Source of the DNA: Prauserella salsuginis
GTDB taxonomy: Bacteria; Actinomycetota; Actinomycetes; Mycobacteriales; Pseudonocardiaceae
Assembly (NCBI RefSeq): GCF_024648885.1
Contig: NZ_JANBBF010000010.1
Coordinates: 124,001-188,000 of the forward strand
Direction: 5' to 3'
DNA: 64,000 nt
Part shown: positions 33,773 through 58,175 of the stretch, piece after piece
How the letters are laid out: the number at the start of each line of letters is the position of its first letter
How positions within the stretch are numbered: position 1 is the stretch's first letter
The notes under the pieces: model-generated
Database searches by the model: none
What the model was told of the DNA's origin: nothing
What the model saw: the letters and a program-made list of their open reading frames with translations, nothing else
Position numbers and translations under genes: made by a program

Positions 33773-35127
33773 TCGTGGATCTGCTCTGGGCTCTCGGGAT
33801 GGGCCTGACGGGCGCTGTGGTGTTCGGCGCCATCGGCCTCGTTTCGGGTACCGACGAGACCGCGACGCTCGGGCCGTTGACGTTGATCGTCGTGCTTGCC
33901 GGAGTTCCGCCCGTCGGGGTGTTCACGTTCTTCATCGCCGCGGCGGTGTCCAAGCACATGACACACGCGATTCCGACCACGCTGCTCGGAATTCCGGGTG
34001 ACACCATGGCGGTGCCGCTCATGGAGGATGCGGACGGAATGCGGCGGCTCGGCGCACCGCACGTCGCGTTGCGCAAGGCGCTCGCGGGCGCGCTGCTGTC
34101 GGCTGTCATCGCCGTACCGGTCGCGGTGGGAATCGCAACCGCGTTGGCGCCCTTGTCCGAAACCGTGGAGGCTGTCGCACCGTGGCTGTTCGCGGCCGCC
34201 GCGATCTTCGTGGGCTATTTCTCGCCGGGCCGCTGGGCCAGCATCGTGGGAATCATTCCGTTCACCCTGGCCATCGCCGCGTTGCACGGATTCACCGAGC
34301 AACACCTCGGGGACTCGCTGAGCATATCGTTCTTCCTCGGTATCGCGATCGGCCCACTGTTGGCGGACCTGGTGAGGGCGACGTCCCGCACCGGGCGTGC
34401 GGGTATGGAGCGCAGCGGTGTCCGGGAGTTTCATCTCGCGCCGGACCTGTCGGACGGCAGGGGCCCCTTCCCCAACCCGTTTCGCGTGCTCACCCGACAG
34501 CAGATCGGCTACACCGCGGGTTCGGCCGTCGTCACCTCGTCCACATTCGTGTTCAGTCCGGTGGCGACGACCGTCATCGTGGGTGAAGCGGTGGGTGCAC
34601 GGCTGAAACATCCCTACCAACGTCTGAGCTCGCTGATGGCGGTCAAGAACGGCACGACGGAGTCGACCTATCTGGCTGAGACGATCATTCCGCTGGTGGC
34701 GTTCGGCCTGCCGTTGAGTCCCGTCGCCGCCGGCCCCGCCGCCGCGTTGTTCAACGCCCCGCCGGTCTACTCGGTGGATTCGGGACAGAATCTGCACTCG
34801 ATGCTGTCGTCGTGGCAGTTCCTGTTCTTCGGGTTGCTGGGGGTGCTCGTCGCGGCCGTGGTCGTCTATCCCGTCGCGATGAAGTATGCGCGTGTGGCCA
34901 GCGCATGGGTGATCACGCGCGTCAGCCACGAAGCGCTCATCGCCGCGTTCGCCGGGTTGATCGTCGTCGTGTCCTGGTACGAAGGCGGAGCGCTGGGACT
35001 GTTCACGTCGCTGACCGTCGGGTTGCTGGGCGGTCTGTGCAACCGGGCCTTCGGTATGAACGCGGGCGTGCAGTTCATGTGTTTCTACACCGCGACGATG
35101 TTCGTCCCGATCCTGTTGGCGGCATGA
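33769..35127 (+). CDS. tctA: TctA-family tripartite tricarboxylate transporter permease
   Basis: A 452-residue membrane permease with about eleven helices. TctA landmarks include LVSGTDETATLGPLTLIV near the N-terminus, IPTTLLGIPGDTMAVPLME around residue 65, FSPGRWASIVGIIPFTLAIA and a later AVKNGTTESTYLAETIIPL. TctABC systems import carboxylates with the help of a periplasmic TctC receptor; no tctC gene is seen here. It is coupled to the small TctB-like gene and follows HMG-CoA reductase, so mevalonate or a related hydroxy acid is a sensible substrate guess. It is the last gene before the tRNA-fragment boundary. Confidence 0.88.
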   Translation: MIVDLLWALGMGLTGAVVFGAIGLVSGTDETATLGPLTLIVVLAGVPPVGVFTFFIAAAVSKHMTHAIPTTLLGIPGDTMAVPLMEDADGMRRLGAPHVALRKALAGALLSAVIAVPVAVGIATALAPLSETVEAVAPWLFAAAAIFVGYFSPGRWASIVGIIPFTLAIAALHGFTEQHLGDSLSISFFLGIAIGPLLADLVRATSRTGRAGMERSGVREFHLAPDLSDGRGPFPNPFRVLTRQQIGYTAGSAVVTSSTFVFSPVATTVIVGEAVGARLKHPYQRLSSLMAVKNGTTESTYLAETIIPLVAFGLPLSPVAAGPAAALFNAPPVYSVDSGQNLHSMLSSWQFLFFGLLGVLVAAVVVYPVAMKYARVASAWVITRVSHEALIAAFAGLIVVVSWYEGGALGLFTSLTVGLLGGLCNRAFGMNAGVQFMCFYTATMFVPILLAA

Positions 35128-35316
35128 GCGACCGCCGACGGCACTGGTGGACCGCCGGTTGTCGCCCGTGGGACGACCAGCACTTGGCTTCGCCGGCATC
35201 CGCACGGATCCCGCGGGTCGGCGTCCGGAGGCAGGCCGTGCGGGCCGTCGACCCGCGGCGGTACAACGGCACCATGGCCGTCGTGACGAGCCGACAACCC
35301 GGCTGAACTGGGATTT

Positions 35317-35361
35317 TGGTGGGCCGCCCGGGGCTCGAACCCGGAACCCGAGGATTAAAAG
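35317..35361 (-). pseudogene. 3' fragment of a tRNA-Lys(UUU) gene (probable att remnant)
   Basis: On the minus strand this runs from the anticodon loop CTTTTAA through a 3' anticodon strand, variable loop GGGTT, a perfect T arm (CCGGG, TTCGAGC, CCCGG), the acceptor strand GCGGCCC and ACCA. The expected 5' anticodon strand is missing: the bases before the loop (GCGGG) do not pair with TCCTC. No D arm is present. A tRNA 3' half of 45 bases is the usual duplicated core left at the far end of an integrated element. It marks the left border of the biosynthetic region. Confidence 0.8.
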
Positions 35362-35381
35362 CCCGCGGGTTCGAACGCGGT

Positions 35382-35441
35382 GATCTTGAAACAGGCTTCG
35401 ATTGCAGTGCTTCTACCTGCACTTTTGGCAGTATCAAGATC
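35382..35441. repeat. Nested inverted repeats beside the tRNA fragment
   Basis: GATCTTGA (35382-35389) and its complement TCAAGATC (35434-35441) enclose a second small hairpin AGTGC/GCACT. The stretch is clearly richer in A+T than the surroundings. It could be an integrase arm-binding region or a terminator; no integrase gene remains in view. Confidence 0.4.
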
Positions 35442-35677
35442 ATATTTGCGATGGCTAACGACTAGTCTGGCCTCCGTTATGTCTCCGTTCTTCCTGCAGC
35501 GCTCAGGTGGGCCTCGAGATGATCCGACCTGGGGTTTTGTCTCGCTAACGCACGGATTCGAGGGCTGGCATCATCGTAAGCCGAGCGAGGGGGCGCTGGG
35601 GCGAAGGACGTCCGTCCGATGGACCTGCGGCAGGCCCTCCCTCGGGCTTCCTGTCCGCGTGGGTGGACCGCGCCTTG

Positions 35678-36925
35678 TCATGGCGCAATCTCGCCCTTCT
35701 TCACATCGGGATTCCGGCGTTGGCCCAGTAGAAAGACGACCGGGACTATCGCAAACACAAGGGCAGCGACGACGGTGTTGGGCACAAAGGAGGGCGACCA
35801 GCCAAACAGCGGCGCGGCGACGGCGGCCGCTGATGCTGCCGCCACTTGGTAGCCGGCATTGAGTGCAGTGTTGACTCCGCTGAGCCGGTCGTCACCTGCC
35901 GCAAGATTAGCCCGCCCGCGCAGCAGCGGGAAGGCCAGCGCCTGAGCAAAGGTCAACGATGCGTACAGCATGGCCTGGGCGATGAGGGAATCCGCGAGCA
36001 GCGGCAGCGCGAGCACAAGCGGCACCGGCACCGCCAGCAATGCGGCGAGCCACGGGTTCGGCAGCTTCGCTACGACGCCGGTGAGCGATGCACCCACGAC
36101 TGCGACGACGCCGGCCGCGACGAAGACGAGGGTCACGGTGTTGACGTCACGGGTTGCGCCGGTGGTGTCCGTCAGTACCCAACTGGGGTAGAAGGAGATG
36201 ACGGTGAACAATGCGAAGGTGAACAGCCAGAACGCCATAACCGGCTCGCGAATTCCGGGCCTGGCGGCGTGCAGCAGTACTCGCAGCCCGCGGTTCGCCC
36301 GGCCGTTCGTGTGCCGGGGTGCCGCAGGGAACGCGAACAGCACCGCCACCGCGACTGCCGCGGCGAGGAGCGCAAGTGCCGCGAAGCTCCACCGCCATGA
36401 TAGATGCCCGGCGACGAACAGTGCGCCGGGCACGGTAACCAGCTGCGCCAGTGAGCCACCGGCTACCACCTGACCGGTGACTGCCATGCGTCGCTCCTGT
36501 GGCACGTAATCAGCAATGCATGGAAACACCGCCACGCCGATGAGGGGCATGAACAAGCCGGTGGCGACCCGCAGCCCGATCGCGAGCACACCTGAGTCGA
36601 CCATTGCAGTGCCGAGCAACAGCAGCGCGACGACCGAGCTGCCGATGACGACCGAGCGCCGCCGTCCGATCACGTCGACGAACGGCCCGAAGATCAGGTT
36701 ACCCGCGAAGCTCGCCAGTGGCAGTGCGGCGACGACCGCCCCACGTTGCCACTCGGACATGAACATCTCGTCGGCCATGAACACGACCAGCGGCGGCACC
36801 AGCGCGATGTTCGCGGCGACGATGAACCACGCCGCGCCGAGTAGTACTGCAACCAGCCACCCGGGGACGGGACGGCGCTCGGCCAGTGTGCGAAAACGGT
36901 TGTCGACATCAGCCGAAGTCGTCAC
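35678..36925 (-). CDS. Major facilitator superfamily transporter
   Basis: A 415-residue MFS protein with twelve hydrophobic helices. The loop 2-3 signature appears as GPFVDVIGRRRSVVIGSS, and VASGLF-type small-residue helices follow. The GTG start overlaps the ATP-grasp stop (GTGA), so it is made with the biosynthetic enzymes. It is probably the export or self-protection pump for the cluster product. It is the last gene of the leftward operon. Substrate is not predictable from sequence. Confidence 0.9.
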   Translation of the reverse strand: MTTSADVDNRFRTLAERRPVPGWLVAVLLGAAWFIVAANIALVPPLVVFMADEMFMSEWQRGAVVAALPLASFAGNLIFGPFVDVIGRRRSVVIGSSVVALLLLGTAMVDSGVLAIGLRVATGLFMPLIGVAVFPCIADYVPQERRMAVTGQVVAGGSLAQLVTVPGALFVAGHLSWRWSFAALALLAAAVAVAVLFAFPAAPRHTNGRANRGLRVLLHAARPGIREPVMAFWLFTFALFTVISFYPSWVLTDTTGATRDVNTVTLVFVAAGVVAVVGASLTGVVAKLPNPWLAALLAVPVPLVLALPLLADSLIAQAMLYASLTFAQALAFPLLRGRANLAAGDDRLSGVNTALNAGYQVAAASAAAVAAPLFGWSPSFVPNTVVAALVFAIVPVVFLLGQRRNPDVKKGEIAP

Positions 36926-38226
36926 GCCACCGGCTCCGCCTGGTGTGGCCAGTTGATCATCTCGATATCCGTGCGATCGCCCAGCTCCCGCACCGTCGAG
37001 ACGCACGTCGTGACGACCTCTTCCCGGCTGTTCCCGACACCGAGCACGTGGCCCAGGTAGTGCAGATTGCTCTCGGCCCTCCGCACGTCCTGGCCGGGAC
37101 GGGAGCGCAGCACCCAGTCACGGATATTCTCGTTATCGCGTAGGAACGACAGGTCCGCGTCCACGCGGTGCACCGCGTTACGGACAGGCGCGAGCACGTG
37201 GGCGCCTCCGTGTCGCATAGGTTGAATCGATGGTTCCGGAACTGGCAGTCCCAAGTGGACGGCGATCAACGCCTCGTGCACGTCGACGCCCCAGCACTCC
37301 TTTATGAGCAACGGGTTCGGACCACCCACGATTCGCGGATTCGGGTCGATGAGGCACGGGCCAGTGTCAGTCATGATCACCTCCATATGGAACAATCCGA
37401 GGTCAAGTTCGAGTGCCCGCGCCGCGGCAGCCGTGTACTCTCGCACCTCCCGATCGCGTTCGATGGACAGAGCGGCGGGCACGATCGAGCCCAGCTCCAT
37501 CGTGCGATCGTGCTGGTACTGCTGGCGTTCCAGCACGGCCAGTGGCACGTGGACTCCGCGGCCAGCTGCGATCTCGACCGACATCAGCGCGCCTTCGAGA
37601 TAGGTCTCAACGATGAGATCGGTGCCGAACGCCGCACGCTGTGCCGGGGTCATCCAAGCTACCGAGTTGCTGATCTTGCTCTGCGCGACTGCGATGTCGG
37701 CGTGCTCTCGAACGATGCTCGCACCAATACTCGCACTACCTGCCGCGGGCTTGACGACAGCGGGCAGTCCGACCTTGTCCAATGCCGCCGGAATGCCCTC
37801 CGGTGCATCTACGACGGCGTACTCAACGGTACGTAGTCCGGCTTCGGCTAGGCAGTCGCGAGCCAGCGCCTTATTGCGTGCGTTCTCAACCCCGGCAGGG
37901 CTCGTGAACGGAATGTCCAGCGACCTGGCGGCGGGGGCGAGGCTCTGCACAACCTCATCGTGCATGCCGATCACCGCATCGACCGGGTGTTTCTGGTCGA
38001 TCTGTGCCAGCACCGCGTGCACCGCGTGCACCGCGTGCTCGTCCCCTGAGCTTGTGAGCGGTACCACCCGGTCGACCGCCTGCCGCATCGTGTCGAACTC
38101 GGCGCCCTGGTACGCGGACGCATAGCTCTCGGACGCCACGAAGGTCACGTCGTGGCCGAGCCGCGTCGCTGTGAGCACGGCACGGAACCCGTACGGACGG
38201 CTATCAACGAAGACAACGTGCGCCAT
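36922..38226 (-). CDS. ATP-grasp carboxylate-amine ligase
   Basis: A 434-residue ATP-grasp enzyme. The N-terminal preATP domain has VVFVDSRPYGFRAVLTATRL, followed by GMHDEVVQSLAPAARSLDIP. The ATP-binding lobes show PAVVKPAAGSASIGASIV with its catalytic Lys, ELDLGLFHMEVIMTDTGPCL and the metal-binding IDPNPRIVGGPNP. The family activates a carboxylate as acyl phosphate and joins it to an amine (peptide or amide bond). AAGGAAA precedes the ATG. Within a diaminopropionate cluster that lacks any NRPS, it is the probable bond-forming enzyme, either dipeptide ligation or ring closure. Confidence 0.9.
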   Translation of the reverse strand: MAHVVFVDSRPYGFRAVLTATRLGHDVTFVASESYASAYQGAEFDTMRQAVDRVVPLTSSGDEHAVHAVHAVLAQIDQKHPVDAVIGMHDEVVQSLAPAARSLDIPFTSPAGVENARNKALARDCLAEAGLRTVEYAVVDAPEGIPAALDKVGLPAVVKPAAGSASIGASIVREHADIAVAQSKISNSVAWMTPAQRAAFGTDLIVETYLEGALMSVEIAAGRGVHVPLAVLERQQYQHDRTMELGSIVPAALSIERDREVREYTAAAARALELDLGLFHMEVIMTDTGPCLIDPNPRIVGGPNPLLIKECWGVDVHEALIAVHLGLPVPEPSIQPMRHGGAHVLAPVRNAVHRVDADLSFLRDNENIRDWVLRSRPGQDVRRAESNLHYLGHVLGVGNSREEVVTTCVSTVRELGDRTDIEMINWPHQAEPVA

Positions 38227-38401
38227 GTATTTCCTTTCCTTTACGTGACCGCTCGGCCCACGCGGCTACGTATCTAGTAATCGAATCAGGGACCGTGGGA
38301 CGATGGATAAGTACAGTTGCACCCGGCACTCCGTGCATCTGCCCGCGCCCAGCCTGCTGCACGTCAACACCGGGCACAACTTCGCCTAAGTCGTTGAGCA
38401 C
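38204..38401 (-). CDS. Possible short or degenerate gene upstream of the ATP-grasp ligase
   Basis: A frame of 65 codons can start with GTG and ends 23 bases inside the ATP-grasp gene. The same frame is open further upstream to a stop near 38473, about 90 codons in all, and reads like a real protein in places (DRIAVLNDLGEVVPGVDV, TVPDSITRYVAAWAERS). A separate GTG overlapping the cysC stop opens a different frame that stops after 27 codons. It may therefore be a small unknown protein or a remnant broken by a frameshift. No family is recognised. Confidence 0.3.
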   Translation of the reverse strand: MLNDLGEVVPGVDVQQAGRGQMHGVPGATVLIHRPTVPDSITRYVAAWAERSRKGKEIHGARCLR

Positions 38402-38483
38402 CGCTATACGGTCCGCCCCCAGTAAGCCGAGTTGGTCGGTGGCGGGGACGGGTGTGATCGCCGCGTGTCACAAGCGAAACGGA

Positions 38484-39095
38484 TCACCGCAGACCCCAGA
38501 CCTTCATCGCCGCCAGAACGCGGTCTACGGAACCCTCTACGGTTTCCTCCTGCGTGTGCAGCCGCAGGTCGGGGTTGCTCGGCGTCTCGTAGGGATCGTC
38601 TACTCCGGTCAGGCCGGTAATCTCACCGGTGCGCTGCTTGGCATACAGACCTTTGACGTCCCGCTCGGCGCAGACCTCCAGCGGTGTGGCTACGTGGACC
38701 TCGCGGTAGGATGTGCCCGCGCCAAGGTGCTGTTCCTTGATCACCGCCCGTGCATCGGCGTACGGCGCAATGACAGGAACCATGACCTTGACCCCGTTGC
38801 GCGCCAACAGCTGCGCTACCCAGCCGACGCGGTAGACGTTGATGGTCCGGTCTTCGCGGGAGAATCCGAGGCCGTTCGAGAGTTTGGCGCGGAACTCGTC
38901 GCCGTCCAGCACTTCGACGCGATGACCGACGGCGCGGAGTTCGCTGGCTACCATGCGGGCGATCGTGGTCTTGCCCGAGCTCGGTAGACCGGTCAGCCAT
39001 ACCGTCGCGCCGTGTTCCTGTCCGGGTGTGGTGCGGTACGCGTCGTGCTCGACCAGTGCCGTCTTTCTGTGTGGTGGTCCCATATCAGCGTTCAT
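38484..39095 (-). CDS. cysC: Adenylylsulfate (APS) kinase
   Basis: A 203-residue APS kinase, which phosphorylates adenylyl sulfate to PAPS, the sulfate donor for sulfotransferases. It has the P-loop WLTGLPSSGKTTIA near residue 33, the APS site VLDGDEFRAKLSNGLGFSRE, VMVPVIAPYADARAVIKEQH and EVCAERDVKGLYAKQRTGEI. It stands alone, without the sulfurylase genes cysDN usual for assimilation. Its neighbour 1.1 kb away is a sulfotransferase. This is a PAPS supply gene dedicated to product sulfation. A second ATG five codons in is possible. Confidence 0.95.
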   Translation of the reverse strand: MNADMGPPHRKTALVEHDAYRTTPGQEHGATVWLTGLPSSGKTTIARMVASELRAVGHRVEVLDGDEFRAKLSNGLGFSREDRTINVYRVGWVAQLLARNGVKVMVPVIAPYADARAVIKEQHLGAGTSYREVHVATPLEVCAERDVKGLYAKQRTGEITGLTGVDDPYETPSNPDLRLHTQEETVEGSVDRVLAAMKVWGLR

Positions 39096-39135
39096 AGTTA
39101 TCTACCCCAATAGCAGAGCGAAGCTGAAACAGTCA

Positions 39136-40128
39136 TCAGACGAACGTCTTCTGCAGCTCTTGACGACGCGTGCGTGCCATAGGCGACAGACAGCCCGGGA
39201 ACCGTTCCTCCACCCACGACCGGTCGTAGAGCGTGTCGAGGTACCGGTCACCGAGGTCGGGCGAGATAGCCACGGCGGTGACGTCGTCCGGAATGTCTTT
39301 CAGGTATCGTTCGGCCGCGCTCAGTACGGTGCCGGTCGACCCGCCGAACAGGAACCCGCGCTCCGCGAGCCGGTAGCACATCTGCACAGCTCCCCGTTCG
39401 TCCTGCATGATCACTTCGTCCACCATCGACTCGTCGACGAGTTCGGGACGCCTGCTGGCACCGAGGCCAGGCAGGAACCGGGGTCCTGGTGCGCTACCGA
39501 AGGTGACCGATCCGATGCTGTCGACCGCTATGACTTTCGCCTTATGTTCGTGGTCCCGCATGTAGCGCGCGCAGCCCATGAGCGTGCCTGTGGTGCCCGC
39601 GCCTATGAACACGTAGTCCACCGACGGAAATTGTCGGATCAGTGCAGGTGCGGTGTGGCGGTAGTGGGCCCGCCAGTTCTCGTCGTTCGCGTACTGGTTC
39701 AACCAGACGTAGTTCGGGCTGACCTCGCACAGCTCTTGCACGGCACGCATGCGGCTACCGAGATACCCGCCCGTCTCGTCGAGCTGGGTGACCACAACGA
39801 CCTCGCCGCCCATGCTCTCCACAAGGCGGTGGACGCCGGGGTTCGCCCGAGGATCGATAACGCAGACGAACCGGTATCCACGGCTTGCGGCGAGAATCGC
39901 CAGCGCAATGCCGAGGTTTCCCGACGAGGACTCGACGATCACGGAGTCTGGAGTGATGCGGCCGGAGCGTTCCGCCTCATCCAACATGGAGCGAGCGGCC
40001 TTCAGCTTCACCGATCCGGCGAAGTTGAAGTTCTCACACTTGAGATAGAGCTCGCGACCGAGGAACGGGCGCAGATTGACGTAGACGTCGTCGACGACGA
40101 GGTCTTCGGCGGCGGTCACGATGGGCAC
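39136..40128 (-). CDS. SbnA-like PLP enzyme, diaminopropionate pathway step 1
   Basis: A 330-residue fold-type II PLP protein of the cysteine-synthase family. The PLP Lys is in NFAGSVKLKAARSML, the phosphate loop in FIGAGTTGTLMGCARYM, and SSGNLGIALAILAASRGY is the usual helix. It most resembles SbnA, which joins O-phospho-L-serine and L-glutamate into N-(2-amino-2-carboxyethyl)-glutamate. The SbnB-like partner lies in the same cluster, which supports this over plain cysteine synthesis. AGGGGGAA precedes the GTG start. The gene stands between cysC and the sulfotransferase in one orientation. Confidence 0.88.
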   Translation of the reverse strand: MPIVTAAEDLVVDDVYVNLRPFLGRELYLKCENFNFAGSVKLKAARSMLDEAERSGRITPDSVIVESSSGNLGIALAILAASRGYRFVCVIDPRANPGVHRLVESMGGEVVVVTQLDETGGYLGSRMRAVQELCEVSPNYVWLNQYANDENWRAHYRHTAPALIRQFPSVDYVFIGAGTTGTLMGCARYMRDHEHKAKVIAVDSIGSVTFGSAPGPRFLPGLGASRRPELVDESMVDEVIMQDERGAVQMCYRLAERGFLFGGSTGTVLSAAERYLKDIPDDVTAVAISPDLGDRYLDTLYDRSWVEERFPGCLSPMARTRRQELQKTFV

Positions 40129-40164
40129 AACGATTCCCCCTGTTTACTGTGGTGACGGGCCACG

Positions 40165-40953
40165 TCATCCGTATGTGACTTCTTCGCTTGCCGCGTGCAC
40201 GAACTGGGGCGCGTTCCGCAGGCGTTCGTACTGCTCCGTTGCCCAGCGCACGTGGTCGCGGAGACCGTTGGTCTCTGGGAAGTCTTCTACTGGGATGGGT
40301 ACCTCTACGGGCATTTCGAGGCCCTTGCTGTTCAGCACCCTGGTAAAGAAGTGGTCGACGCCGCCGACTCGGTAGTTGCTCAACTGCAACTCGGGCTGCG
40401 GCTGCCACCTCAGTTGAGACTCGTCGAAGTACAGTCCCCACGCCGTGAACATCTGGTCGAACACTTGTGGAGGGTTCGACCGGAAGTCGTAGCTGTCCAT
40501 GACTATATGGGGGACGTCGTGCTGTTGGCATTGGTCTATTTGCTCGATCAGTGCGTTCCAGCCCGTTTCCGCCAGTGGGAAGTCGAGCGGCTGCTCCTGG
40601 AGCTGCCTAACCCGGCGGCGCGAGCTGATAGTCAACCGCGGGTCGCGCAGCAGGAACACAACTGGGTGCGCGGTCTTCGACAGCAACTGAGGTAGGTGTG
40701 GGCCAATTTGGAAGCTGATCTCTTTGACCAGCACGCCCTCGCCGACCTTGGCACCGACCACCGGCTGAAGGTCGACTGGGCTGTCGATAGCGGCTTCAGC
40801 CGCTGCGGCGTCGAGGCCCTTGAAATAGGTGGACTCATACGGTTCGTGCGAGTAATAGCGTATGGCGGGGTTGTTCCAGATGACACGGGACAGCGCGGTG
40901 GACGCGCTACGAGGAGGTCCGATCACCAAGTAGGTGTTTCGCGGATCAGCCAC
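40165..40953 (-). CDS. PAPS-dependent sulfotransferase (Stf0-like)
   Basis: A 262-residue sulfotransferase. The 5'-phosphosulfate loop is YLVIGPPRSASTALSRVIW near the N-terminus, and the 3'-phosphate-binding segment is LLRDPRLTISSRRRVRQ near the middle. GTG at 40953 is chosen because AAAGGA lies eight bases before it; an in-frame GTG five codons earlier is possible. The enzyme should move a sulfo group from PAPS to a hydroxyl or amine of the pathway intermediate. The APS kinase gene in the same operon supplies PAPS. Acceptor identity is unknown. Confidence 0.88.
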   Translation of the reverse strand: MADPRNTYLVIGPPRSASTALSRVIWNNPAIRYYSHEPYESTYFKGLDAAAAEAAIDSPVDLQPVVGAKVGEGVLVKEISFQIGPHLPQLLSKTAHPVVFLLRDPRLTISSRRRVRQLQEQPLDFPLAETGWNALIEQIDQCQQHDVPHIVMDSYDFRSNPPQVFDQMFTAWGLYFDESQLRWQPQPELQLSNYRVGGVDHFFTRVLNSKGLEMPVEVPIPVEDFPETNGLRDHVRWATEQYERLRNAPQFVHAASEEVTYG

Positions 40954-41034
40954 GGAAAATCCTTTCACAAGAGGTTGACTCTGCGGAATTAATCGAAGCG
41001 CAGGGCTTATGCGGCTCCTTTATTGCAGGTGATC

Positions 41035-42813
41035 TCAGATGAGAGTCAATTTGTTCAAGTGCGAACTACTAGTCGAGTTAGAAGTAGACAAGAACGACCG
41101 GACCGCGCGATCTGCGTCATTGGTTGCCCGCGATTTGGAACCGGGTGAGGTTACGTAGTGATTGTAATAGCTGGACCCCTCAGCCAGCGGTCCGAAAACG
41201 GCCAGAGTTGGTTGCGGATTTCCCTGCGCATCGATTGCGAACCCGTTCTCATCGACCTGTGCGCCGAGCTCCGTGCGACCTGCGATGACCGGGCGCAACC
41301 TGTCCGAGGTGTACAGGTGCTGCACCACCGGATTTGTCGAATAAGTGATCGTCGGTGAAGGGGAGAACCCGTACACCACGCGATTTAGCTCCGTCGTGCG
41401 GGGTTTCGTTAGAGCGGTGGACTCGAGCAGCCATCGTCCGTCCGACCAGGTGAGCCCGCATTTCGGGCCGAGGCCGGGTGAGAGCACACCGGCTCGAACC
41501 AAAGCGACGAGCTCCTCGTTGCGTTCGAGCTGAGGGCAGATGACATTACGGTTGATTTCGCTGGCGAATGGGCCGAAGAACTCCGCCAGCGACAGCTCGG
41601 TCATTCCCACCCCGTCCACTGCGTGGCGTAGCACTTCGCGTAGATCGCGAAGCGTCTCGAACGCGGCCTTGATTGGGCTGCGGTCCAGTCCTCGGCGCGC
41701 TTCAGTCAGGTCTTGCTCGACCTGATCGACGAACCAGACGCCGTAAGAATCTGCCGAATACAGGGCGGAGGCGGGGACCTCGGCAGTCCAGGTCGCGGTG
41801 ACTTGGGCCGTGAGTCGGGCCGCTACAACAGGGTCAGGTTCCATCACGCTGATCCGGTGCCGCATCTCGGCGTTCACCAGCGGGAGTACGTCGCGGTGGA
41901 AATCCAGCCTGCCGTCCGCCGTACGCGCCCTGGCCTCCTGTAGCGCGGATAGGGTTAGGTGCTGCGGGGCCATGGGCTCTGACCGGTAGGGACGTGGTCG
42001 TGCGCGGGCCGGCAGACCTCTGCGCGTGATGAGCACGATCTTCGGCTCGTCGCCGCTCGCTACGTATCTCAGCTGTCCAGCAGCCTCGTAGCGGCCGCCG
42101 CGACCGACCGTGAGTTCGGCGATCACGTCCATAGCCGTCAACCCGCTACCGAGCACGCCGATTGTCTCGCCCGCGCCGATGTGGGCTAGTGCACCAGGCA
42201 TCGGGTACGGGTTGCCGATCACGGCGGTACCGGGAACTTCCTGACCCAGGAGCCGTGGAACCGGCGTGCCAGTGTGGCCGACGCACAGAACCACGCCGTC
42301 CACTTTCACGGACGTGCCGTTGTCGAGCGCAACCTCTTCGCGCCCGTCTATCAGCCGACGCACCTCGAACGCCGCGCTATTGTGCAGGCGGATGTCCAGC
42401 CAGGGCGGGGCGACGTCGAGCAGCTGTCCGAACGCCCACCGCAGGTACTCTCCGAGCAGACGGCGCGGCAAGTGGTCGATGGGCTCGACCCTGCGGACCT
42501 CGCCGGTGTTTGACGTAACTCGAACACCACGCCGTAACGACCACTCGTAGAGCGACGGCCCGCGGACGCCACCATCCTCAACCATAACGTCATCCACGAA
42601 GGTGGTCAGCTGCGAGGCGATCGTGTTTAGTAGCAGGTGGTCCGACTGAGCGCCGTGGATGCCGCCGCCCGCCGCCTCGGGATCGATTATGTGGAGCACG
42701 ATCGGTCGCTGCTGCAGATCACGACTCACGTGGAACACAAACCGTTCGAGGACGTTCATTCCGCGGGGGCCACAACCGATTAGCGCGTAAGCGGCGGCGT
42801 ACCGATTGTTCAC
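41035..42813 (-). CDS. FAD/NAD(P)-binding protein (FAD-NAD(P)-binding family, PF13454 type)
   Basis: A 592-residue flavoprotein. The N-terminal dinucleotide site is YALIGCGPRGMNVLERFV. A second site, ETIGVLGSGLTAMDVIAEL near residue 218, follows a central VDGVVLCVGHTGTPVP strand, so two nucleotides are bound, as in N-hydroxylating or Baeyer-Villiger monooxygenase-like folds. The end is a hydrophilic Ser/Asn-rich tail. Its GTG overlaps the SbnB-like stop (GTGA). A redox step on the diaminopropionate-derived intermediate is likely; whether it is N-oxidation or a dehydrogenation cannot be told from sequence. Confidence 0.8.
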   Translation of the reverse strand: MNNRYAAAYALIGCGPRGMNVLERFVFHVSRDLQQRPIVLHIIDPEAAGGGIHGAQSDHLLLNTIASQLTTFVDDVMVEDGGVRGPSLYEWSLRRGVRVTSNTGEVRRVEPIDHLPRRLLGEYLRWAFGQLLDVAPPWLDIRLHNSAAFEVRRLIDGREEVALDNGTSVKVDGVVLCVGHTGTPVPRLLGQEVPGTAVIGNPYPMPGALAHIGAGETIGVLGSGLTAMDVIAELTVGRGGRYEAAGQLRYVASGDEPKIVLITRRGLPARARPRPYRSEPMAPQHLTLSALQEARARTADGRLDFHRDVLPLVNAEMRHRISVMEPDPVVAARLTAQVTATWTAEVPASALYSADSYGVWFVDQVEQDLTEARRGLDRSPIKAAFETLRDLREVLRHAVDGVGMTELSLAEFFGPFASEINRNVICPQLERNEELVALVRAGVLSPGLGPKCGLTWSDGRWLLESTALTKPRTTELNRVVYGFSPSPTITYSTNPVVQHLYTSDRLRPVIAGRTELGAQVDENGFAIDAQGNPQPTLAVFGPLAEGSSYYNHYVTSPGSKSRATNDADRAVRSFLSTSNSTSSSHLNKLTLI

Positions 42814-43808
42814 CAGCGTTTCTCCTCGCCGATGAAGTTCTCGATCTCGACCGCTTTTCCGGCATCCCTTGCCTGTTTCAGAACGAACGAGCCGACTGCA
42901 ATGTCGAGAACGCCGAGACCGAACGGGGAGAAGATGGTCGCTCGGTCAGAACGCAATTCGATTTCTCCACGAAGTACATCGCCGATTGTTCCGTCGATGA
43001 ATTCCCGCCCGTCCGAAAGGCGTTCGGCAAGATGCGCTGATGTTTCTGCCTTGAGGCAATGGTCGACATCGTCGAGAACATTGTTCGACCGAAGTAAGAT
43101 CTCCGGTGCGATGTCCCGCAACGAAATGTTAAGTACCAATTGTCCGGGATGGAACTCCGTAGCCGGAGTGACATAAGGCGTCGGTGCGGTAGTGGCGAAG
43201 ACGACGATGTCAGATTCCAACGCCTCGTTGAGAGTGTCGACGAACTTCGCGGTGATCGGGTATTCTTCCGAGATGTATCGGACGAGATTCGCCCCGCTGG
43301 CGGGAACCAGATCGTGGACGACGGCCTCGCTAATACCCTGAACGGCCACCAGGAGATAGTCGGCAATGGTGCGAGCGATGATGCCGGACCCGATAAACGA
43401 CACCGTCCGCGTTTCAGCAGGCTTCAGCCGTGCCGCCGCCAGCGTCGCTGAGGCGGCGGTGCGTGCTGCGCTGATGCCAGCGGACTCCAGGCACGCGATC
43501 GGGGACCCGGTTGCGTAGTCGTTGAGGAGCAGTGCGGCGGACGCACGTGGCCTGCCCGACGCAACATTGTCCGGGAAGCTGGCGATCCACTTCATGCCGA
43601 TCTTGTCGAAAGTTCCGCCGAGGTATCCAGGTAATGCTATTACCCTGGAGTTGGGTTTATCCGGGAATCTTAGAAAGTAACTATCCGGGTTGATGCTCGC
43701 GCCAGCCTCGTGCAACAAGTATGTCTCATGCACCAATTCCAGTACGGTGGTACGAGAGGTTCTCAGAATGTCGTCGGCCACTTCTCCGGGTACGACAAAA
43801 AAACTCAA
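42810..43808 (-). CDS. SbnB-like dehydrogenase, diaminopropionate pathway step 2
   Basis: A 332-residue protein of the ornithine cyclodeaminase/mu-crystallin family. Motifs are GTFDKIGMKWIASFPDN, ACLESAGISAARTAASATLA, the Rossmann SFIGSGIIARTIADYLL and ISLRDIAPEI. SbnB oxidatively cleaves the SbnA product with NAD to L-2,3-diaminopropionate and 2-oxoglutarate; both halves of that pathway are here. The start is a TTG with GGGGGA upstream, which is unusual and may keep expression low. It is the first gene of the leftward operon, facing a 480-base divergent region. Confidence 0.9.
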   Translation of the reverse strand: MSFFVVPGEVADDILRTSRTTVLELVHETYLLHEAGASINPDSYFLRFPDKPNSRVIALPGYLGGTFDKIGMKWIASFPDNVASGRPRASAALLLNDYATGSPIACLESAGISAARTAASATLAAARLKPAETRTVSFIGSGIIARTIADYLLVAVQGISEAVVHDLVPASGANLVRYISEEYPITAKFVDTLNEALESDIVVFATTAPTPYVTPATEFHPGQLVLNISLRDIAPEILLRSNNVLDDVDHCLKAETSAHLAERLSDGREFIDGTIGDVLRGEIELRSDRATIFSPFGLGVLDIAVGSFVLKQARDAGKAVEIENFIGEEKRW

Positions 43809-44289
43809 CAGAAAAATCCCCCAGTTTTAGAATTTGTGAAACGACGCAAGAAGAGTGTCTATCGTGTACTTATCGTCAGTCCTGTGTCAGTCTTGATGCG
43901 ACTGGGTGAATTTTAGGTGGCCAGTCCTTGTTGTCTCGGAAAATAAGTTGATACCTTCGGTGGTGCGACGTGGCAATTCTCGCCGCTGGGTGTACGGGTG
44001 TATTCCAATTTCTCCAAATCCCCTCATTTCACCGTGAATGCTCCCATGGAACGCGCTGCTATTCGCAATACTCCAATAGGTTGAACCTCGACGGGGTGCT
44101 CGGAGGGTTTGTTGCACGCGGTGGTCAGTTGTCGGCTCCGACTTTGTGGTGTGATGTGCCTCATGCCACAGTCGAAGTGGATTCAACAATATTCCGTGTG
44201 CTGCCTTGTAGCGTTACGGTTTCGTCGTACGCAAGCGCATCGCGGCGGCACGCCGTCAGTAGTGTCGGAGACATTGGGGAAGTTGAAAA
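43809..44289. other. Divergent promoter region of the biosynthetic cluster
   Basis: About 480 bases between the leftward SbnB-like and rightward oxidase genes. It is visibly richer in A+T than the flanking genes, and short open frames within it show no protein-like character. It should hold both promoters, including a long leader for one or both operons. No regulator gene is in the cluster, so the region may be read by a remote regulator. I see no clear riboswitch. Confidence 0.6.
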
Positions 44290-45327
44290 ATGGTTGCAGA
44301 TTCGACCATGGTCGTCCGCGTGGAGGACCTCGTTGAGCGGGTCATACTTGGCGAAGGCGACGTGGTGCGGACGATGATCCGCGGCAGTGGCGGTGCGACG
44401 GAGCTGGGTTGGCAGCTGCGTCGATCCGCGTACGAACTCGCGCAACAGGCAGACCGAGACAGTGACGCGTTCGCCCGCCTGCATCGGACCTTGGAGCTGA
44501 TGCACAGCCTGTACTTCACCAAGCCCAGGCCCGGCGAGGCGGACATCAACCGCCGCGCCATCATCGACCCGGCACAGGCCGTGCTGGACGACTTCGCAGT
44601 CGGATTCGAGGACCAGTGGATCGACTCCACGCGATGCCCGGACACGTCGGACCCGGACGAGTTCGTACGAGAACTCAAAGATCAGGTTCGAGCGCACCCG
44701 GCGAATCGGCACCCGTTCTACGTCGACTTCCTGCCCAACACCGCTACCGTCGAGCACATCCGGTACTACCTGGCTCAGGAGACGGCACTGGACCCGCGGT
44801 TCGACGACTTCATCGCGCTAATGCAGCTAGGGTGCGACCCGCAGCAGAAGCTGGAACTGGCGGGCAACTACTGGGACGAGATGGGCAACGGCGACCACAC
44901 ACGAGTCCACACGAACATGTTCAGTCAAGCGATGCACGAGGTCGGCGCCACCGAGGAATTCGTCGCCAACAACAGGCTCACCGAGACGCTGGTGTGCGGG
45001 AACCTGTCCGCGGCGTTGGCCGTGAATCCGCGGTTCTACTACCGGTCCATCGGCAGCTTCGCCGTCACCGAATTCCTGTTCCCGCGCCGCTGCGCTCAAC
45101 TGCTGGAGGCGTGGAACCGCAACGATCTACCGGCCGCCAGCGGCGAGTACCACCGGGAACACATCGGCGTCGACGCCCGACACGCCAGCGGCTTCTTCCG
45201 CAACGTCATCAAGCCCGAACTGGCCAAGAACCCGGCCAGCGGCCCGGACATCTACTGGGGAGCGATGGCCCGCATGAACTCCTCGCACCGCTACCTGGAC
45301 TGCCTGCTGACAGAGGTTACCCGGTGA
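44290..45327 (+). CDS. Heme-oxygenase-like diiron oxidase (iron-containing redox enzyme family)
   Basis: A 345-residue protein whose C-terminal 220 residues form the heme-oxygenase-like diiron (HDO) fold. Candidate metal ligands are Glu in YYLAQETALDPRFDDF, Glu and His in NYWDEMGNGDHTRVHTNM, and His/Asp/His in EYHREHIGVDARHASGF. The HDO family (BesC, UndA, SznF central domain) does N-oxygenation, C-C cleavage or desaturation on amino or fatty acids. The first 100 residues are a distinct helical domain. GGGGAAG lies before the ATG. The gene overlaps the next by GTGA. Confidence 0.88.
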   Translation: MVADSTMVVRVEDLVERVILGEGDVVRTMIRGSGGATELGWQLRRSAYELAQQADRDSDAFARLHRTLELMHSLYFTKPRPGEADINRRAIIDPAQAVLDDFAVGFEDQWIDSTRCPDTSDPDEFVRELKDQVRAHPANRHPFYVDFLPNTATVEHIRYYLAQETALDPRFDDFIALMQLGCDPQQKLELAGNYWDEMGNGDHTRVHTNMFSQAMHEVGATEEFVANNRLTETLVCGNLSAALAVNPRFYYRSIGSFAVTEFLFPRRCAQLLEAWNRNDLPAASGEYHREHIGVDARHASGFFRNVIKPELAKNPASGPDIYWGAMARMNSSHRYLDCLLTEVTR

Positions 45328-45617
45328 GGCTGACCGTCACACGCGGCGACGAAGTGGCGTCGTTCGACGTCGATACCGTCGACGACCCTGACTTTGAGCG
45401 GTGGTGTCGCACAGTCACCATGATGTCTGAACACATCCACGCCGCCTGCCCCAAGATCCTTGACGACACCGTGGGGAGGATGCTGGCCGCAGTGTCGGAG
45501 ATCGCGGACGCGTTCGACGTCGAATGCCGGATCGACACCCACTCTGCCGGCCAGCGTGAACAGGTCGAGGCGTTGCCATTGGAAGATGCGTTCGTGACGG
45601 TGCGGGTGCGGTTGTGA
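45324..45617 (+). CDS. Small orphan protein of the biosynthetic cluster
   Basis: A 97-residue acidic soluble protein, VRLTVTRGDEVASFDVDTVD at the start, with two Cys and one long central helix (HIHAACPKILDDTVGRMLAA). It overlaps both neighbours by GTGA junctions, first with the diiron oxidase and then with the permease, so its synthesis is tied to both. No family is recognised. It may be an accessory or chaperone for the oxidase, or a carrier. Coding certainty comes from the coupled overlaps. Confidence 0.75.
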   Translation: MRLTVTRGDEVASFDVDTVDDPDFERWCRTVTMMSEHIHAACPKILDDTVGRMLAAVSEIADAFDVECRIDTHSAGQREQVEALPLEDAFVTVRVRL

Positions 45618-46819
45618 CGTTCGCCCGCTGTCTCGCGCTGTACGTCACCTCCATCGTCGGCGTCGGTGTGCTCGGTTTGCCCGCGCTGGCCTACCGACAA
45701 GCCGGCGTGTGGTCGTTGGTGGCGTGGCTGGTCATGATCGTCCTCGGTGCGGCTGTCGGATATTTCTTCCTGCAGTTGGCACTGCACCACGCCAGCGGCG
45801 GCGGGGTGGCCGACTACGCACGCGCCGCGTTCGGCGACCCTCTCGGCCGCTTGTGCGGTTACCTGTTCTACTTCGCCATCCCTTTCGGGGCACCCGCCAC
45901 CGCCCACATTGCCGCACTCATGCTCGGCGAATATCAGTCGTGGCAGTACTGGACCGCGTTCGGGATCATCCTGGTCGGAGCGGTCATCGCCAACGCCGCC
46001 GGTACGACCGTCGCGTTCCGCGTTCAGCTCGTGGGAGCTGTGGTGCTCGCCGTCGCGCTCGCCGTCGCCGTCGGGGGTGCGATCACCCATGTCGAGCCCG
46101 CCAATTTCACGACCGGTCCCGAACACGGCCCATTGTCGGCGCTGGGCGCATTGTTGATCGTGTTCTTCGCGTTCGCCGGCTGGGAGGCTGTCACCGGCTT
46201 CGCCCACGAAGCGCTCACCGCCGGAGTCAACCTCCGCCGCGTTACCGCCATCACCGTCGCGATCATCGCGGTCCTGTACACCGGATTCGCGGTCACCTCT
46301 ATCGGCGCTATCGGACCCGACCTGGCGACGACACCCAACGCGCTCGGCACACTCCTGTCCACCACCTTCGGCCCTCACGCCGTCTGGGTCTCACGAGCAC
46401 TCAGCCTGCTGCTCGGTCTGCTCGCGGTGAACGCGTTCGTCGGATCCGTCGCACGGCTTGGCGCCGACCTAACCCGCCGACGGCACCTCCCGCAGCCGCT
46501 CGCCCGCGCCACTGTGCGCACCCACAGCCTCCAACTCGGCATCCTCGGAGCCGTTGTCACCGCCGTGTTCGCGCCGACGGCGCTCGGGATGGACACGACC
46601 GTCGAGATCGCGTCAGGAATGTTCGCCGCTGTCACCATCATCGGCCTACTCGCCGCCGCGCGGCTTCTCACACTGTCCAAACCGGCGCTGCTCGTGCTCT
46701 TCGTCACGTGTGCTCTGTTCGCATCGGCGATTCTGTCCAACCTTGCGGCCATCGTCACGATCACGGCCGTGGCGGCAGCGACGGTCGTCTTCGTGCGCAA
46801 TCGCGCTGGGTCAACCTGA
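45614..46819 (+). CDS. APC-superfamily amino acid permease
   Basis: A 401-residue membrane protein with about twelve helices. The first helix carries the APC signature SIVGVGVLGLPALAYRQAG, and helix 6 has ALGALLIVFFAFAGWEAVTG. Such proteins exchange or import amino acids and amines. The GTG start overlaps the small protein gene. Within a diaminopropionate cluster it could supply a precursor amino acid or export the product. It is the last gene of the rightward operon. Confidence 0.9.
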   Translation: MTFARCLALYVTSIVGVGVLGLPALAYRQAGVWSLVAWLVMIVLGAAVGYFFLQLALHHASGGGVADYARAAFGDPLGRLCGYLFYFAIPFGAPATAHIAALMLGEYQSWQYWTAFGIILVGAVIANAAGTTVAFRVQLVGAVVLAVALAVAVGGAITHVEPANFTTGPEHGPLSALGALLIVFFAFAGWEAVTGFAHEALTAGVNLRRVTAITVAIIAVLYTGFAVTSIGAIGPDLATTPNALGTLLSTTFGPHAVWVSRALSLLLGLLAVNAFVGSVARLGADLTRRRHLPQPLARATVRTHSLQLGILGAVVTAVFAPTALGMDTTVEIASGMFAAVTIIGLLAAARLLTLSKPALLVLFVTCALFASAILSNLAAIVTITAVAAATVVFVRNRAGST

Positions 46820-47032
46820 CAGGAGCTATCCCGGTCGCGGAGATCGAAGCGTGGGCAAATGCGCGGCAGCTGGCTGCCGCCCACCAGCGGCTCGGCGGGA
46901 GGCCAATAGGATCACCCCCACCACAGTCGACCGAGGCCTCACCAAGAGCCAGGGCGACCTCTGCCTCCAACTGTTCCTCTCGGCTGGACGGCCTGGTCTC
47001 GCCAGCCGGAGGCGGGCGGTATCGCCCGCGGT

Positions 47033-47950
47033 GTGGAGCTCCACGAGCTCGCGGACCGGCTCCGCCCGTACCTGGGCGCGACGTTCCCCGGTTCCGAGGT
47101 CGGCCGTGTCAGCGTGGAGGGCGACCGGGAGGTTCTGTTCGTCATCGGGCTGCCACCCGAGGACGGCCAACCGATCTATCCTTGCCACAAGGCGCACGGC
47201 GTGCCCGGAGAGGACCAGCTGGCCGATGGTGCGATCTATGTTCGCGACCACAGCAACACTCGGACCGCGAACGCCGGCGAGATTATGGGGCTCATGGAGC
47301 GGGCCCGCGGTGTCCCGCGGCATCCGATTACCCTCGACATCGACCTCCTCGGCACGATCCACCGGGTGGACCGAGTCTCCGAGACGCTCGACCGCCTGTA
47401 TGACCTCGAAGAGCAGCGGTATATCGAGTCGTCATCGAAGGAGAAGAGGCCGCCGCTGCCCGGCTACATTCCTTCGGGGCTCTTCGGCGACACGGTAATG
47501 CCGACGACAGAGGATCGGGCAACGCGGCTGGATGTGTGGAAGCAAGCGCGCCCGGAGCACATCGAGGCAGGCCGTGCACGCCTGCTCGGCGTGGCCCTCG
47601 GGGGCGTGGGACCGTGCGTGGTCAGCCGAGATCGGTTCGTCGCCAGGCCGGAGATCATCTTGACTTTCCACGATTGTGAGGTCGGCTACCCGGTGGGCTG
47701 GGGCCAGCGCGGAAAGAATGGCGAGGTAACGCTGACGCCGGAGTCGTTACGGCCGAACGTGGAGTGGCGCACCGACGTGGACGACTACGTGGTGGTGGCC
47801 CGCGACCCCCAGGCCACGTCCGTGCTCGTCACCTGGGTGCTCACCGAAGACAGCAGCGACCTGACAACCCGGGGCGAGATCGTCGTCCCCGCCGGCACGC
47901 TGGTGGACGCCGCCGAACTGGTCACGAGGACCTTCCTGAACGAGGACTGA
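47033..47950 (+). CDS. AlbA/Schlafen-like domain protein, probably N-terminally truncated
   Basis: A 305-residue frame whose first 90 residues resemble the end of the AlbA_2/Schlafen DNA-binding-type domain: EVLFVIGLPPEDGQPIY, HKAHGVPGEDQLADGAIYV, then RTANAGEIMGLMERA. Such domains normally start about 90 residues earlier. The reading frame stays open upstream to about 46920 but loses protein character, so the N-terminal part has probably been lost. The C-terminal half (EIILTFHDCEVGYPVGWGQ) is not recognised. It lies between the biosynthetic cluster and the tRNA gene, a place where mobile-element remnants collect. Confidence 0.55.
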   Translation: MELHELADRLRPYLGATFPGSEVGRVSVEGDREVLFVIGLPPEDGQPIYPCHKAHGVPGEDQLADGAIYVRDHSNTRTANAGEIMGLMERARGVPRHPITLDIDLLGTIHRVDRVSETLDRLYDLEEQRYIESSSKEKRPPLPGYIPSGLFGDTVMPTTEDRATRLDVWKQARPEHIEAGRARLLGVALGGVGPCVVSRDRFVARPEIILTFHDCEVGYPVGWGQRGKNGEVTLTPESLRPNVEWRTDVDDYVVVARDPQATSVLVTWVLTEDSSDLTTRGEIVVPAGTLVDAAELVTRTFLNED

Positions 47951-48240
47951 CACTCGATCCACGCGCGGACCTGCATCCACCGGTCCGAATCTCGGACGGA
48001 CGCCGCCGGGTAGTGGACGATCATCGCGCCCGGTCGGATGGTGGCATCGAACACTTGTGCTGGGATCTGGGTCCGCGTGTGTGGGCGTCACGTCCGTCGA
48101 GGTCGAGCTGGTCGACCAGCCAGCGCTGGTGGGCGGCGAGAGTAGGTCATCGTCGATGGGAGGAGGTGCCGCACCACGGCCTGCTGCAGACGTGCATGCA
48201 CGTCCATCAACACGCCGCCGAGCTGCTGATTGTCAGGAAG

Positions 48241-48535: not shown

Positions 48536-48931
48536 TAGCTGCCCACAGTGTACTCGGTCGGAGTTTCGCCGCGTTATGTGCCACCCCGCGCTGCAGATCG
48601 GAGGCAGCGGTGGGGGGTGCGCTACCCGTCCGAGTGTCATTGCACTGGGAACGCGGAGTGTGGCGCTTCGCTCGAGGTCTGCGCCGACGGTGCCGCGACG
48701 GGTTGGCTTCGCCACAGGTCAAGCTAAGTGGCGGAAATCACTCTTGTCCGTGGTACTTCGTCGATGACTCTGACGGTCGCCTTAGCGGCGGGGTCGTAGG
48801 ACCTGCGGCACGGGTCCGTTGCATACGTCGTCGGAGGCCGATCGATGGCCACGAGACGCCCAGTAACGTCGATTCGTCCCCCGAGGTGCGGCGAGCCTGC
48901 CTTGATCGCCTACCCAGACGTCGCGGACGTC

Positions 48932-49042: not shown

Positions 49043-49173
49043 GGTGTTGCGGGCGTCTTGGCTGTCGACACGCTGGGGTGCGCGTCTGCCCAAGCCCCTC
49101 GAAATAGGGTGTCTCGGTGGAGGCGCAACGGCCTACCCGTCCCCGCCCTCTTACGAGTAAGGACACCCGACTG

Positions 49174-58151: not shown

Positions 58152-58175
58152 GGGCTGGTCCTGTTCAGTCTGTGA

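What the first reader, a model, noticed from the sequence alone, without database searches (positions are those of the whole stretch)
35678..46819. Compact NRPS-free cluster predicted to make a sulfonated diaminopropionate product
Seen: adjacent SbnA-like and SbnB-like genes, APS kinase, PAPS sulfotransferase, ATP-grasp ligase, FAD/NAD(P) enzyme, diiron oxidase, MFS and APC transporters, in two divergent operons joined by GTGA overlaps. Known: SbnA/SbnB make L-2,3-diaminopropionate (staphyloferrin B); ATP-grasp ligases build dapdiamides from it without an NRPS; monobactams such as sulfazecin carry an N-sulfonated diaminopropionate. Inference: this cluster joins all three ideas and may give a sulfamate, N-sulfonated or monobactam-like small molecule by a route that needs no NRPS. 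I do not recall a characterised cluster with this exact set, but absence cannot be shown here.
Basis: partly seen in the sequence, partly recalled or inferred. Interest (0 to 1): 0.88.

Follow-up and report, generated by a model that had tools for sequence, protein, structure and literature searches.

The report
Cluster for N-oxygenated, sulfated diaminopropionate
A small gene cluster in an actinomycete appears to make the amino acid 2,3-diaminopropionate, put oxygen on one of its nitrogens, attach sulfate and join it to another amino acid without a peptide-synthetase assembly line, which would be an unusual kind of natural product.

Summary
The gene set is real and correctly placed. One key gene was under-read: the "FAD/NAD(P) enzyme" is an N-hydroxylating monooxygenase (NMO) related to L-aspartate N-hydroxylase (PDB 8cp2, E 1e-57). 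It belongs to a separate clade whose genes sit directly beside SbnB in 22 of 23 fetched loci. An aspartate-contacting Asn of 8cp2 is acidic in 22 of 24 SbnB-linked NMOs, the window included; a published Asn-to-Glu mutant there largely loses aspartate hydroxylation. The likely substrate is therefore diaminopropionate (Dap), not aspartate.

The block SbnB-NMO-sulfotransferase-SbnA-CysC recurs in order in one Actinokineospora and two genomes of one other genus (one is Amycolatopsis). Two distant sulfotransferase relatives sit beside NMOs of another Pfam family, one after a diaminobutyrate transaminase. Best reading: PAPS-dependent O-sulfation of an N-hydroxy-diamino acid, then ATP-grasp ligation. 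The diiron oxidase resembles HrmI (lysine to nitro) and was not found in the seven genomes with sulfotransferase relatives. No product is known and no chemistry was tested. My searches of an open-licence paper library found no described pathway with this set.

The parts
35678..36925 (-). MFS exporter (ORF to 37006; likely start GTG 36925, overlapping the ATP-grasp stop)
   Evidence: PF07690 E 4.5e-28; starts listed
36922..38226 (-). ATP-grasp L-amino acid ligase
   Evidence: PF13535 E 2e-16, PF18603 LAL_C2 E 5e-8; nearest solved 3vot, L-amino acid ligase BL00235, E 1e-15
38484..39095 (-). APS kinase (CysC), one of two in the genome
   Evidence: TIGR00455 192 > 139 bits; 2 APS kinase matches in the genome
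39136..40128 (-). SbnA, Dap biosynthesis PLP enzyme
   Evidence: TIGR03945 398.5 > 350; 5d87 SbnA E 5e-67
40165..40968 (-). PAPS sulfotransferase (divergent)
   Evidence: PF19798 E 1e-4, just under cut-off; motifs invariant in 8 of 8 family rows; Sulfotransfer_5 in 6 of 8 rows
41035..42813 (-). FAD/NADPH N-hydroxylating monooxygenase, Dap-linked clade
   Evidence: PF13454 E 2e-30; 8cp2 E 1e-57; residues; tree
42810..43808 (-). SbnB, Dap biosynthesis dehydrogenase
   Evidence: TIGR03944 368 > 327
44290..45327 (+). heme-oxygenase-like diiron oxidase, HrmI/BelK-like amine N-oxygenase
   Evidence: PF14518 E 3e-34; HrmI 9n1a E 5e-70 over 288 residues
45324..45617 (+). 97-aa protein of unknown family
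   Evidence: no Pfam or NCBIfam match; 4-base overlaps with both neighbours; single-sequence model too weak to use
45614..46819 (+). APC-family amino acid transporter
   Evidence: PF13520 E 5e-18; NF008245-like below cut-off

Best explanation
An NRPS-free biosynthetic cluster for a small peptide that carries an N-oxygenated, O-sulfated diaminopropionate. SbnA and SbnB make L-Dap (family membership shown; reaction from established SbnA/SbnB knowledge). The NMO hydroxylates an amine of Dap or of its immediate precursor (inferred from clade, neighbours and active-site change). CysC makes PAPS and the sulfotransferase puts sulfate on the N-hydroxy group, giving N-O-SO3 (inferred from the repeated pairing of the sulfotransferase with N-hydroxylases). 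The ATP-grasp ligase joins this unit to another amino acid and the MFS protein exports it (inferred). The HrmI-like diiron oxidase with the 97-aa and APC genes is an addition not found in the related loci and probably N-oxygenates the partner amino acid (inferred). Whether the sulfate stays in the product or is a leaving group that makes the nitrogen electrophilic is undecided.
For: SbnB lies within 100 bp of the NMO in 22 of 23 loci fetched with the NMO alignment. The 24 SbnB-linked NMOs form one group and the 16 canonical rows (8cp2 included) another, both 100/100. The 8cp2 Asn413 position is Asp/Glu in 22 of 24 SbnB-linked NMOs and Asn in 15 of 15 canonical ones; Arg577 is kept in 0 of 24 and in 15 of 15. 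The N413E mutant of 8cp2 made no detected hydroxylated product and kept only a 4-fold response of NADPH use to aspartate (PMC10404684, section read; its Table 2, seen, prints N413A). A nitrosuccinate-lyase-like gene adjoins, or in L080 shares the ORF of, 11 of 15 canonical NMOs and was found in none of the window and the other 33 loci. The block SbnB-NMO-SulfT-SbnA-CysC recurs in order in L041, L042 (SbnB partial) and L100. Of 8 distinct sulfotransferase loci, 6 have an NMO directly beside it; in L104 and L105 that NMO is PF13434, and in L104 it follows a diaminobutyrate transaminase (TIGR00709 430 > 402). L041 also carries CysD, CysN, TauE and a CysQ-like gene.
Against: L102 (55% sulfotransferase) and L103 (35%) have SbnA, SbnB and CysC but no NMO seen in 20 kb (tblastn with the window NMO; ORF list read by eye; PF13434 not scanned there); the two genomes hold only more distant NMO homologues elsewhere (32-37%). 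The two Pseudomonas SbnB-linked NMOs keep Asn at 413. Arg276, changed in the window protein, is kept in many other SbnB-linked NMOs, so it is no marker. The 23 loci were fetched with patterns built from five SbnB-linked NMOs, so that set is biased toward this clade. PF13434 and PF13454 are not fully separate: the L105 NMO also matches PF13454 weakly (31 bits). The sulfotransferase model was poor (pLDDT 44), so its fold is unproved. The oxidised nitrogen (alpha or beta), the oxidation level and the acceptor of the sulfo group are not shown.
Confidence: 0.5

Rival explanations
1. The sulfotransferase N-sulfonates an amine of Dap directly (sulfamate); the NMO acts on the other nitrogen or on a different substrate.
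For: L102 and L103 pair the sulfotransferase with SbnA/SbnB/CysC without a nearby NMO found. Sulfazecin is known to carry N-sulfonated Dap (recalled).
Against: 6 of 8 sulfotransferase loci have an NMO directly beside it, of two Pfam families. L104 pairs it with a diaminobutyrate transaminase and an NMO, not with Dap genes.
Confidence: 0.25
2. The sulfate is transient (a sub-case of the best explanation; its odds overlap with it): N-O-sulfation makes the nitrogen electrophilic, and it is then used for N-N bond, aziridine or azirine formation, so the final product has no sulfur.
For: Related SbnB-NMO genes share loci with a cupin plus MetRS-like pair in L051, L060 and L062; such pairs are recalled as hydrazine synthetases. 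Sulfate elimination as an aziridine-forming step in natural product pathways is recalled; only lists a review in which the term occurs (PMC9570651, not read).
Against: No cupin or MetRS-like protein is among the ten genes.
Confidence: 0.2
3. The NMO is an ordinary aspartate N-hydroxylase that supplies nitrous acid, as in the cremeomycin, fosfazinomycin, triacsin or alanosine pathways.
For: Overall similarity to 8cp2. The genome has a lyase homologue elsewhere (48% over its match), not examined further.
Against: Separate clade, changed aspartate-contact residues and no lyase of this kind in the window.
Confidence: 0.05

Closest known systems
L-aspartate N-hydroxylases (FzmM, CreE, AlnM, Tri21; structure 8cp2)
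   Same: Homologous over nearly the whole length; Arg13, Asn62, Arg266, Arg409, Arg412 and Arg416 kept
   Different: Asn413 to Glu, Arg577 to Ser, Val571 to Tyr; beside SbnB, with no nitrosuccinate-lyase-like gene in the window; separate clade
Sulfazecin-type monobactam pathway
   Same: Dap, a sulfotransferase and a sulfo group on or next to nitrogen are expected (sulfazecin details recalled)
   Different: No NRPS or thioesterase domain among the ten genes; an N-hydroxylase is present; homology to SulN was not tested
L-alanosine pathway (aln/ala)
   Same: Starts from Dap and involves nitrogen oxidation (PMC11705231 and PMC7347517, passages read)
   Different: Alanosine is described with carrier-bound Dap, an acyl-CoA-dehydrogenase-like N-oxygenase (AlnG) and a cupin/AraC protein; none is among the ten genes
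Dapdiamide and other ATP-grasp dipeptide pathways
   Same: Dap plus an ATP-grasp ligase, no NRPS domains among the ten genes
   Different: DdaF model 49 bits against a cut-off of 840; N-hydroxylase and sulfotransferase added
HrmI/BelK diiron N-oxygenases (hormaomycin, belactosin)
   Same: HDO with E 5e-70 to HrmI; HrmI makes a nitro group from the lysine side-chain amine (PMC13108848, section read)
   Different: Different cluster; substrate unknown

Membership tests
SbnA/SbnB Dap synthesis | NCBIfam equivalog scores over cut-off for both | tested here: met
   398.5 > 350 and 368 > 327
L-aspartate N-hydroxylase (nitrous acid pathway) | Aspartate-contact residues Arg13, Arg276, Asn413, Arg416 and Arg577 of 8cp2 | tested here: not met
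   Arg13 and Arg416 kept; Arg276, Asn413 and Arg577 are Pro, Glu and Ser in the window protein (the place of 276 is uncertain in the alignment)
L-aspartate N-hydroxylase (nitrous acid pathway) | Partner nitrosuccinate lyase beside the NMO | tested here: not met
   none in the window at E 1e-10; present with 11 of 15 canonical NMOs
PAPS-dependent sulfotransferase | 5'-PSB and 3'-PB motifs and sulfotransferase fold | tested here: inconclusive
   PPR..STA and DPRL...SR invariant in 8 of 8 rows (motif names recalled); Sulfotransfer_5 in 6 of 8 rows, window protein itself 21.8 against 23.2 bits; fold model too poor
HrmI/BelK-type amine N-oxygenase | Sequence homology to HrmI | tested here: met
   E 5e-70, 288 residues
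HrmI/BelK-type amine N-oxygenase | Lysine side-chain oxidation to nitro | not testable with these tools
   needs an enzyme assay
Monobactam (sulfazecin-like) | NRPS with beta-lactam-forming thioesterase | tested here: not met
   no NRPS or thioesterase domain among the ten proteins
Dapdiamide | DdaF equivalog | tested here: not met
   49.1 bits against 840
Staphyloferrin B siderophore | IucA/IucC-type NIS synthetases | tested here: not met
   no such Pfam match among the ten proteins (family requirement recalled)
ATP-grasp L-amino acid ligase | ATP-grasp domain with LAL C-terminal domain | tested here: met
   PF13535 60 > 27 and PF18603 33.6 > 29.4 bits

The most novel reading that the evidence does not exclude
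A biosynthetic logic not described in the papers I could search: a diamino acid (Dap here, 2,4-diaminobutyrate in L104) is N-hydroxylated by a monooxygenase of one of two Pfam families and then O-sulfated with PAPS, giving an N-O-sulfate amino acid. This is either a natural counterpart of synthetic monosulfactam-like N-oxysulfonates or an enzymatic hydroxylamine-O-sulfonate that donates electrophilic nitrogen.
Probability: 0.45. Interest if true: 0.9.

Novelty: new variant of a known kind. Interest (0 to 1): 0.72.

Why it matters
It defines a Dap-linked clade of N-hydroxylases, separable by tree, neighbours and an active-site position, which would help to predict products of uncharacterised clusters (Streptomyces, Frankia, Pseudomonas and Roseobacteraceae loci). 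If the N-O-sulfate is real, it adds a sulfation-based way to activate nitrogen in biology, with possible antibiotic warheads or N-N chemistry, from a compact cluster that can be tested in laboratory hosts.

Tried and rejected
Considered and rejected: staphyloferrin-type siderophore, dapdiamide, sulfazecin-type monobactam and ascamycin- or phaseolotoxin-type sulfation (defining genes absent, or different gene sets; for the last two, passages of PMC9113183, PMC4257720 and PMC5453526 read). A plasmid tblastn for the sulfotransferase gave nothing. A sulfotransferase search of the sampled class found only the own genome (1 of 394 at E 1e-8); a profile search found 11 of 389, own included, the others weak (best E 2e-14), and I did not examine their neighbours. 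The AlphaFold models of the sulfotransferase (pLDDT 44) and the 97-aa protein (65, single sequence) were too weak to search with.

An error of mine: the L041 'CysQ' query (17430-18170) was out of frame; redo it in frame (17431-18171; PF00459 E 4e-25; CysQ models match below cut-off; a homologue also in L102). The CysQ entries printed are to be ignored.

Full report
Observation. The region holds ten genes in two divergent groups. On the minus strand, in order of transcription, lie SbnB, FAD monooxygenase, sulfotransferase, SbnA, APS kinase, ATP-grasp ligase and MFS exporter. On the plus strand lie a heme-oxygenase-like diiron oxidase, a 97-aa protein and an APC transporter. SbnA, SbnB and APS kinase pass curated cut-offs. 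Overlaps of four bases occur at four of eight same-strand junctions, one of them only if the MFS gene starts at GTG 36925.

Host and setting. The genome is 5.64 Mb in 15 contigs, with the window at C3:124001-188000. So the host is very probably of that family, genus unknown. None of six same-genus genomes has the sulfotransferase. In 2-kb windows GC is 0.67-0.73 up to about 35 kb and 0.58-0.68 after it. A tRNA 3'-half fragment lies at 35.3 kb, found once in the genome with up to 3 mismatches. The cluster thus looks like part of an acquired island; this is an inference.

The FAD enzyme. Its only match in the PDB sequence search is 8cp2, which the paper identifies as an L-aspartate N-hydroxylase that makes nitrosuccinate by three rounds of oxidation (PMC10404684; abstract, part 1 of the results, and the substrate-site section read). 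In a sample of 394 genomes of the class, 61 (own included) have an NMO homologue at E 1e-20. I fetched neighbourhoods of 24 of those places (4, 20), 23 loci from named genomes and one plasmid record. SbnB lies within 100 bp of the NMO in 22 of the 23 (SbnB of L042 is partial); L043 lacks SbnB. SbnA at 43% identity or more is present in 21 of 23; L043 has a 32% match and L051 none. The 23 loci were fetched with two peptide patterns taken from five SbnB-linked NMOs, so they over-represent this clade.

Specificity. Aligned to 8cp2, the window protein keeps Arg13, Asn62, Arg266, Arg409, Arg412 and Arg416 but has Glu for Asn413, Pro for Arg276, Tyr for Val571 and Ser for Arg577. Over 24 distinct SbnB-linked NMOs (window included) position 413 is Asp or Glu in 22; the exceptions are the two Pseudomonas loci L060 and L062 (Asn). 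Over 15 canonical NMOs (48-68% identical to 8cp2) it is Asn in 15, and no SbnA or SbnB match was found in those loci. Arg577 is kept in 0 of 24 and 15 of 15. Arg276 is kept in many SbnB-linked NMOs and is no marker. Position 413 is also acidic in four NMOs without SbnB (L040, L043, L064, L066); three further rows (L069, L077, L079) fit neither pattern. The text of the 8cp2 paper reports that N413E gave no detected 3-nitropropionate or other hydroxylated product, keeping a limited 4-fold response to aspartate; its Table 2 prints the mutant as N413A. A lyase of the kind expected for the nitrous acid pathway adjoins 10 of the 15 canonical NMOs and shares an ORF with an eleventh (L080); it was found in none of the window and the other 33 loci. 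L043 holds a gene of the broad lyase family PF00206 that those queries did not match. A maximum-likelihood tree of 47 rows makes the 24 and the 16 (8cp2 included) each one group with 100/100 support when the seven ungrouped rows are left aside; four of these (L040, L043, L064, L066) lie on the SbnB side. The tree output warns of long branches at L059 with the Pseudomonas rows. I infer that the NMO oxidises Dap or a Dap precursor. Which nitrogen, and how far, is not shown.

The sulfotransferase. A search of 346 genomes of the family found it in 8, own included (E 1e-8); 60 relatives gave 3 of 60, own included and two weak, and the class 1 of 394. Two of the eight are the same as named loci already fetched, so there are eight distinct loci including the window. 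Window, L041, L042 and L100 carry SbnB-NMO-SulfT-SbnA-CysC in this order (SbnB of L042 lacks internal parts). L102 has SbnB-SulfT-SbnA-CysC-CysD-CysN-TauE, and L103 has SulfT, SbnA, SbnB, CysC, CysD and CysN. In neither was an NMO seen within 20 kb (tblastn with the window NMO, and ORF lists read by eye; PF13434 was not scanned), and their genomes hold only more distant NMO homologues elsewhere. L104 has a diaminobutyrate transaminase, SulfT, a PF13434 NMO, CysD, CysN, CysC and an ATP-grasp ligase. L105 has SulfT beside a PF13434 NMO, with an SbnB-like gene below cut-off and NRPS domains. So an NMO adjoins the sulfotransferase in 6 of 8 loci, and these NMOs fall in two Pfam families, although the L105 protein also matches PF13454 weakly, so a distant kinship is possible. 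That pattern is what an N-hydroxy O-sulfotransferase would show. The two NMO-free loci are what a direct N-sulfotransferase would show. I weigh the first about two to one.

Accessory genes. An ATP-grasp ligase is in window, L041, L042, L100 and L104 (5 of 8). The diiron oxidase has HrmI as its closest solved relative by sequence; HrmI oxidises the lysine side-chain amine to nitro by way of N6-hydroxylysine (PMC13108848, section read). No other homologue was detected in the genome. It is found in 4 of 394 class genomes at E 1e-30, own included, and in 0 of 7 genomes with sulfotransferase relatives at E 1e-10. It therefore looks like an addition in this strain, perhaps for the partner amino acid.

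Related clusters. In Streptomyces loci that I inspected or grouped by similarity, a Cys/Met-type PLP enzyme and a BenE-type permease often follow SbnA-SbnB-NMO. L051, L060 and L062 also carry a cupin plus methionyl-tRNA-synthetase-like pair, recalled as a hydrazine-forming pair, and L062 a lysine/ornithine N-hydroxylase. This places the SbnB-NMO module in N-O and perhaps N-N chemistry.

Novelty. Searches of the open-licence library aimed at this gene set listed no paper that I could recognise, from titles, abstract starts and the passages read, as describing Dap synthesis, an N-hydroxylase and a sulfotransferase in one cluster. One search gave one paper; its passage concerns staphyloferrin-like clusters. 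Subscription journals and MIBiG were not available, so absence from print is not shown. The parts are known families; the combination and the Dap-linked NMO clade are new to me.

Verdict. A real, rare, conserved biosynthetic core with a strong case for N-oxygenated Dap, a moderate case for its sulfation at oxygen, and no proof of product.

Noticed in passing
window 49117-63988: A defence region right of the cluster: type I restriction-modification genes (49117-55020) followed by a pPIWI-RE system (PIWI-RE, DinG-like, REase and PDDEXK genes, 55362-63988).
   Followed up: partly
window 35317-35362 (-): 3' half of a lysine-type tRNA (type read by eye), one copy in the genome, at the point where GC falls; possible integration edge. 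Further tRNA-like pieces by eye at about 48250-48550; ARAGORN found no tRNA in the window and Rfam none in 34900-49200.
   Followed up: partly
L044, L045, L046, L053, L057 and other loci: SbnA-SbnB-NMO followed by a Cys/Met-type PLP enzyme and often a BenE permease; might release nitrite from an oxidised Dap, a Dap-based counterpart of the aspartate nitrous acid pathway.
   Followed up: partly
L060, L062, L051: SbnB-NMO genes share loci with a cupin plus MetRS-like pair, L062 also with a Lys/Orn N-hydroxylase; suggests N-N chemistry using Dap.
   Followed up: partly
L043 and L040: NMO of the acidic-413 type without SbnB but with a cysteine-synthase-like PLP enzyme, an ATP-grasp, a lyase-family gene (PF00206 in L043) and, by eye, GHMP-kinase-like and AlaX-like genes; may be another Dap route.
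   Followed up: no
L042 9573-9968: SbnB of Amycolatopsis sp. CA-126428 lacks internal stretches while L100 has an intact relative; degeneration or assembly fault.
   Followed up: no
L104: A cluster with diaminobutyrate transaminase, sulfotransferase, PF13434 NMO, TauD-like dioxygenase, ATP-grasp and CysD/N/C genes: an apparent diaminobutyrate version of the same logic.
   Followed up: partly
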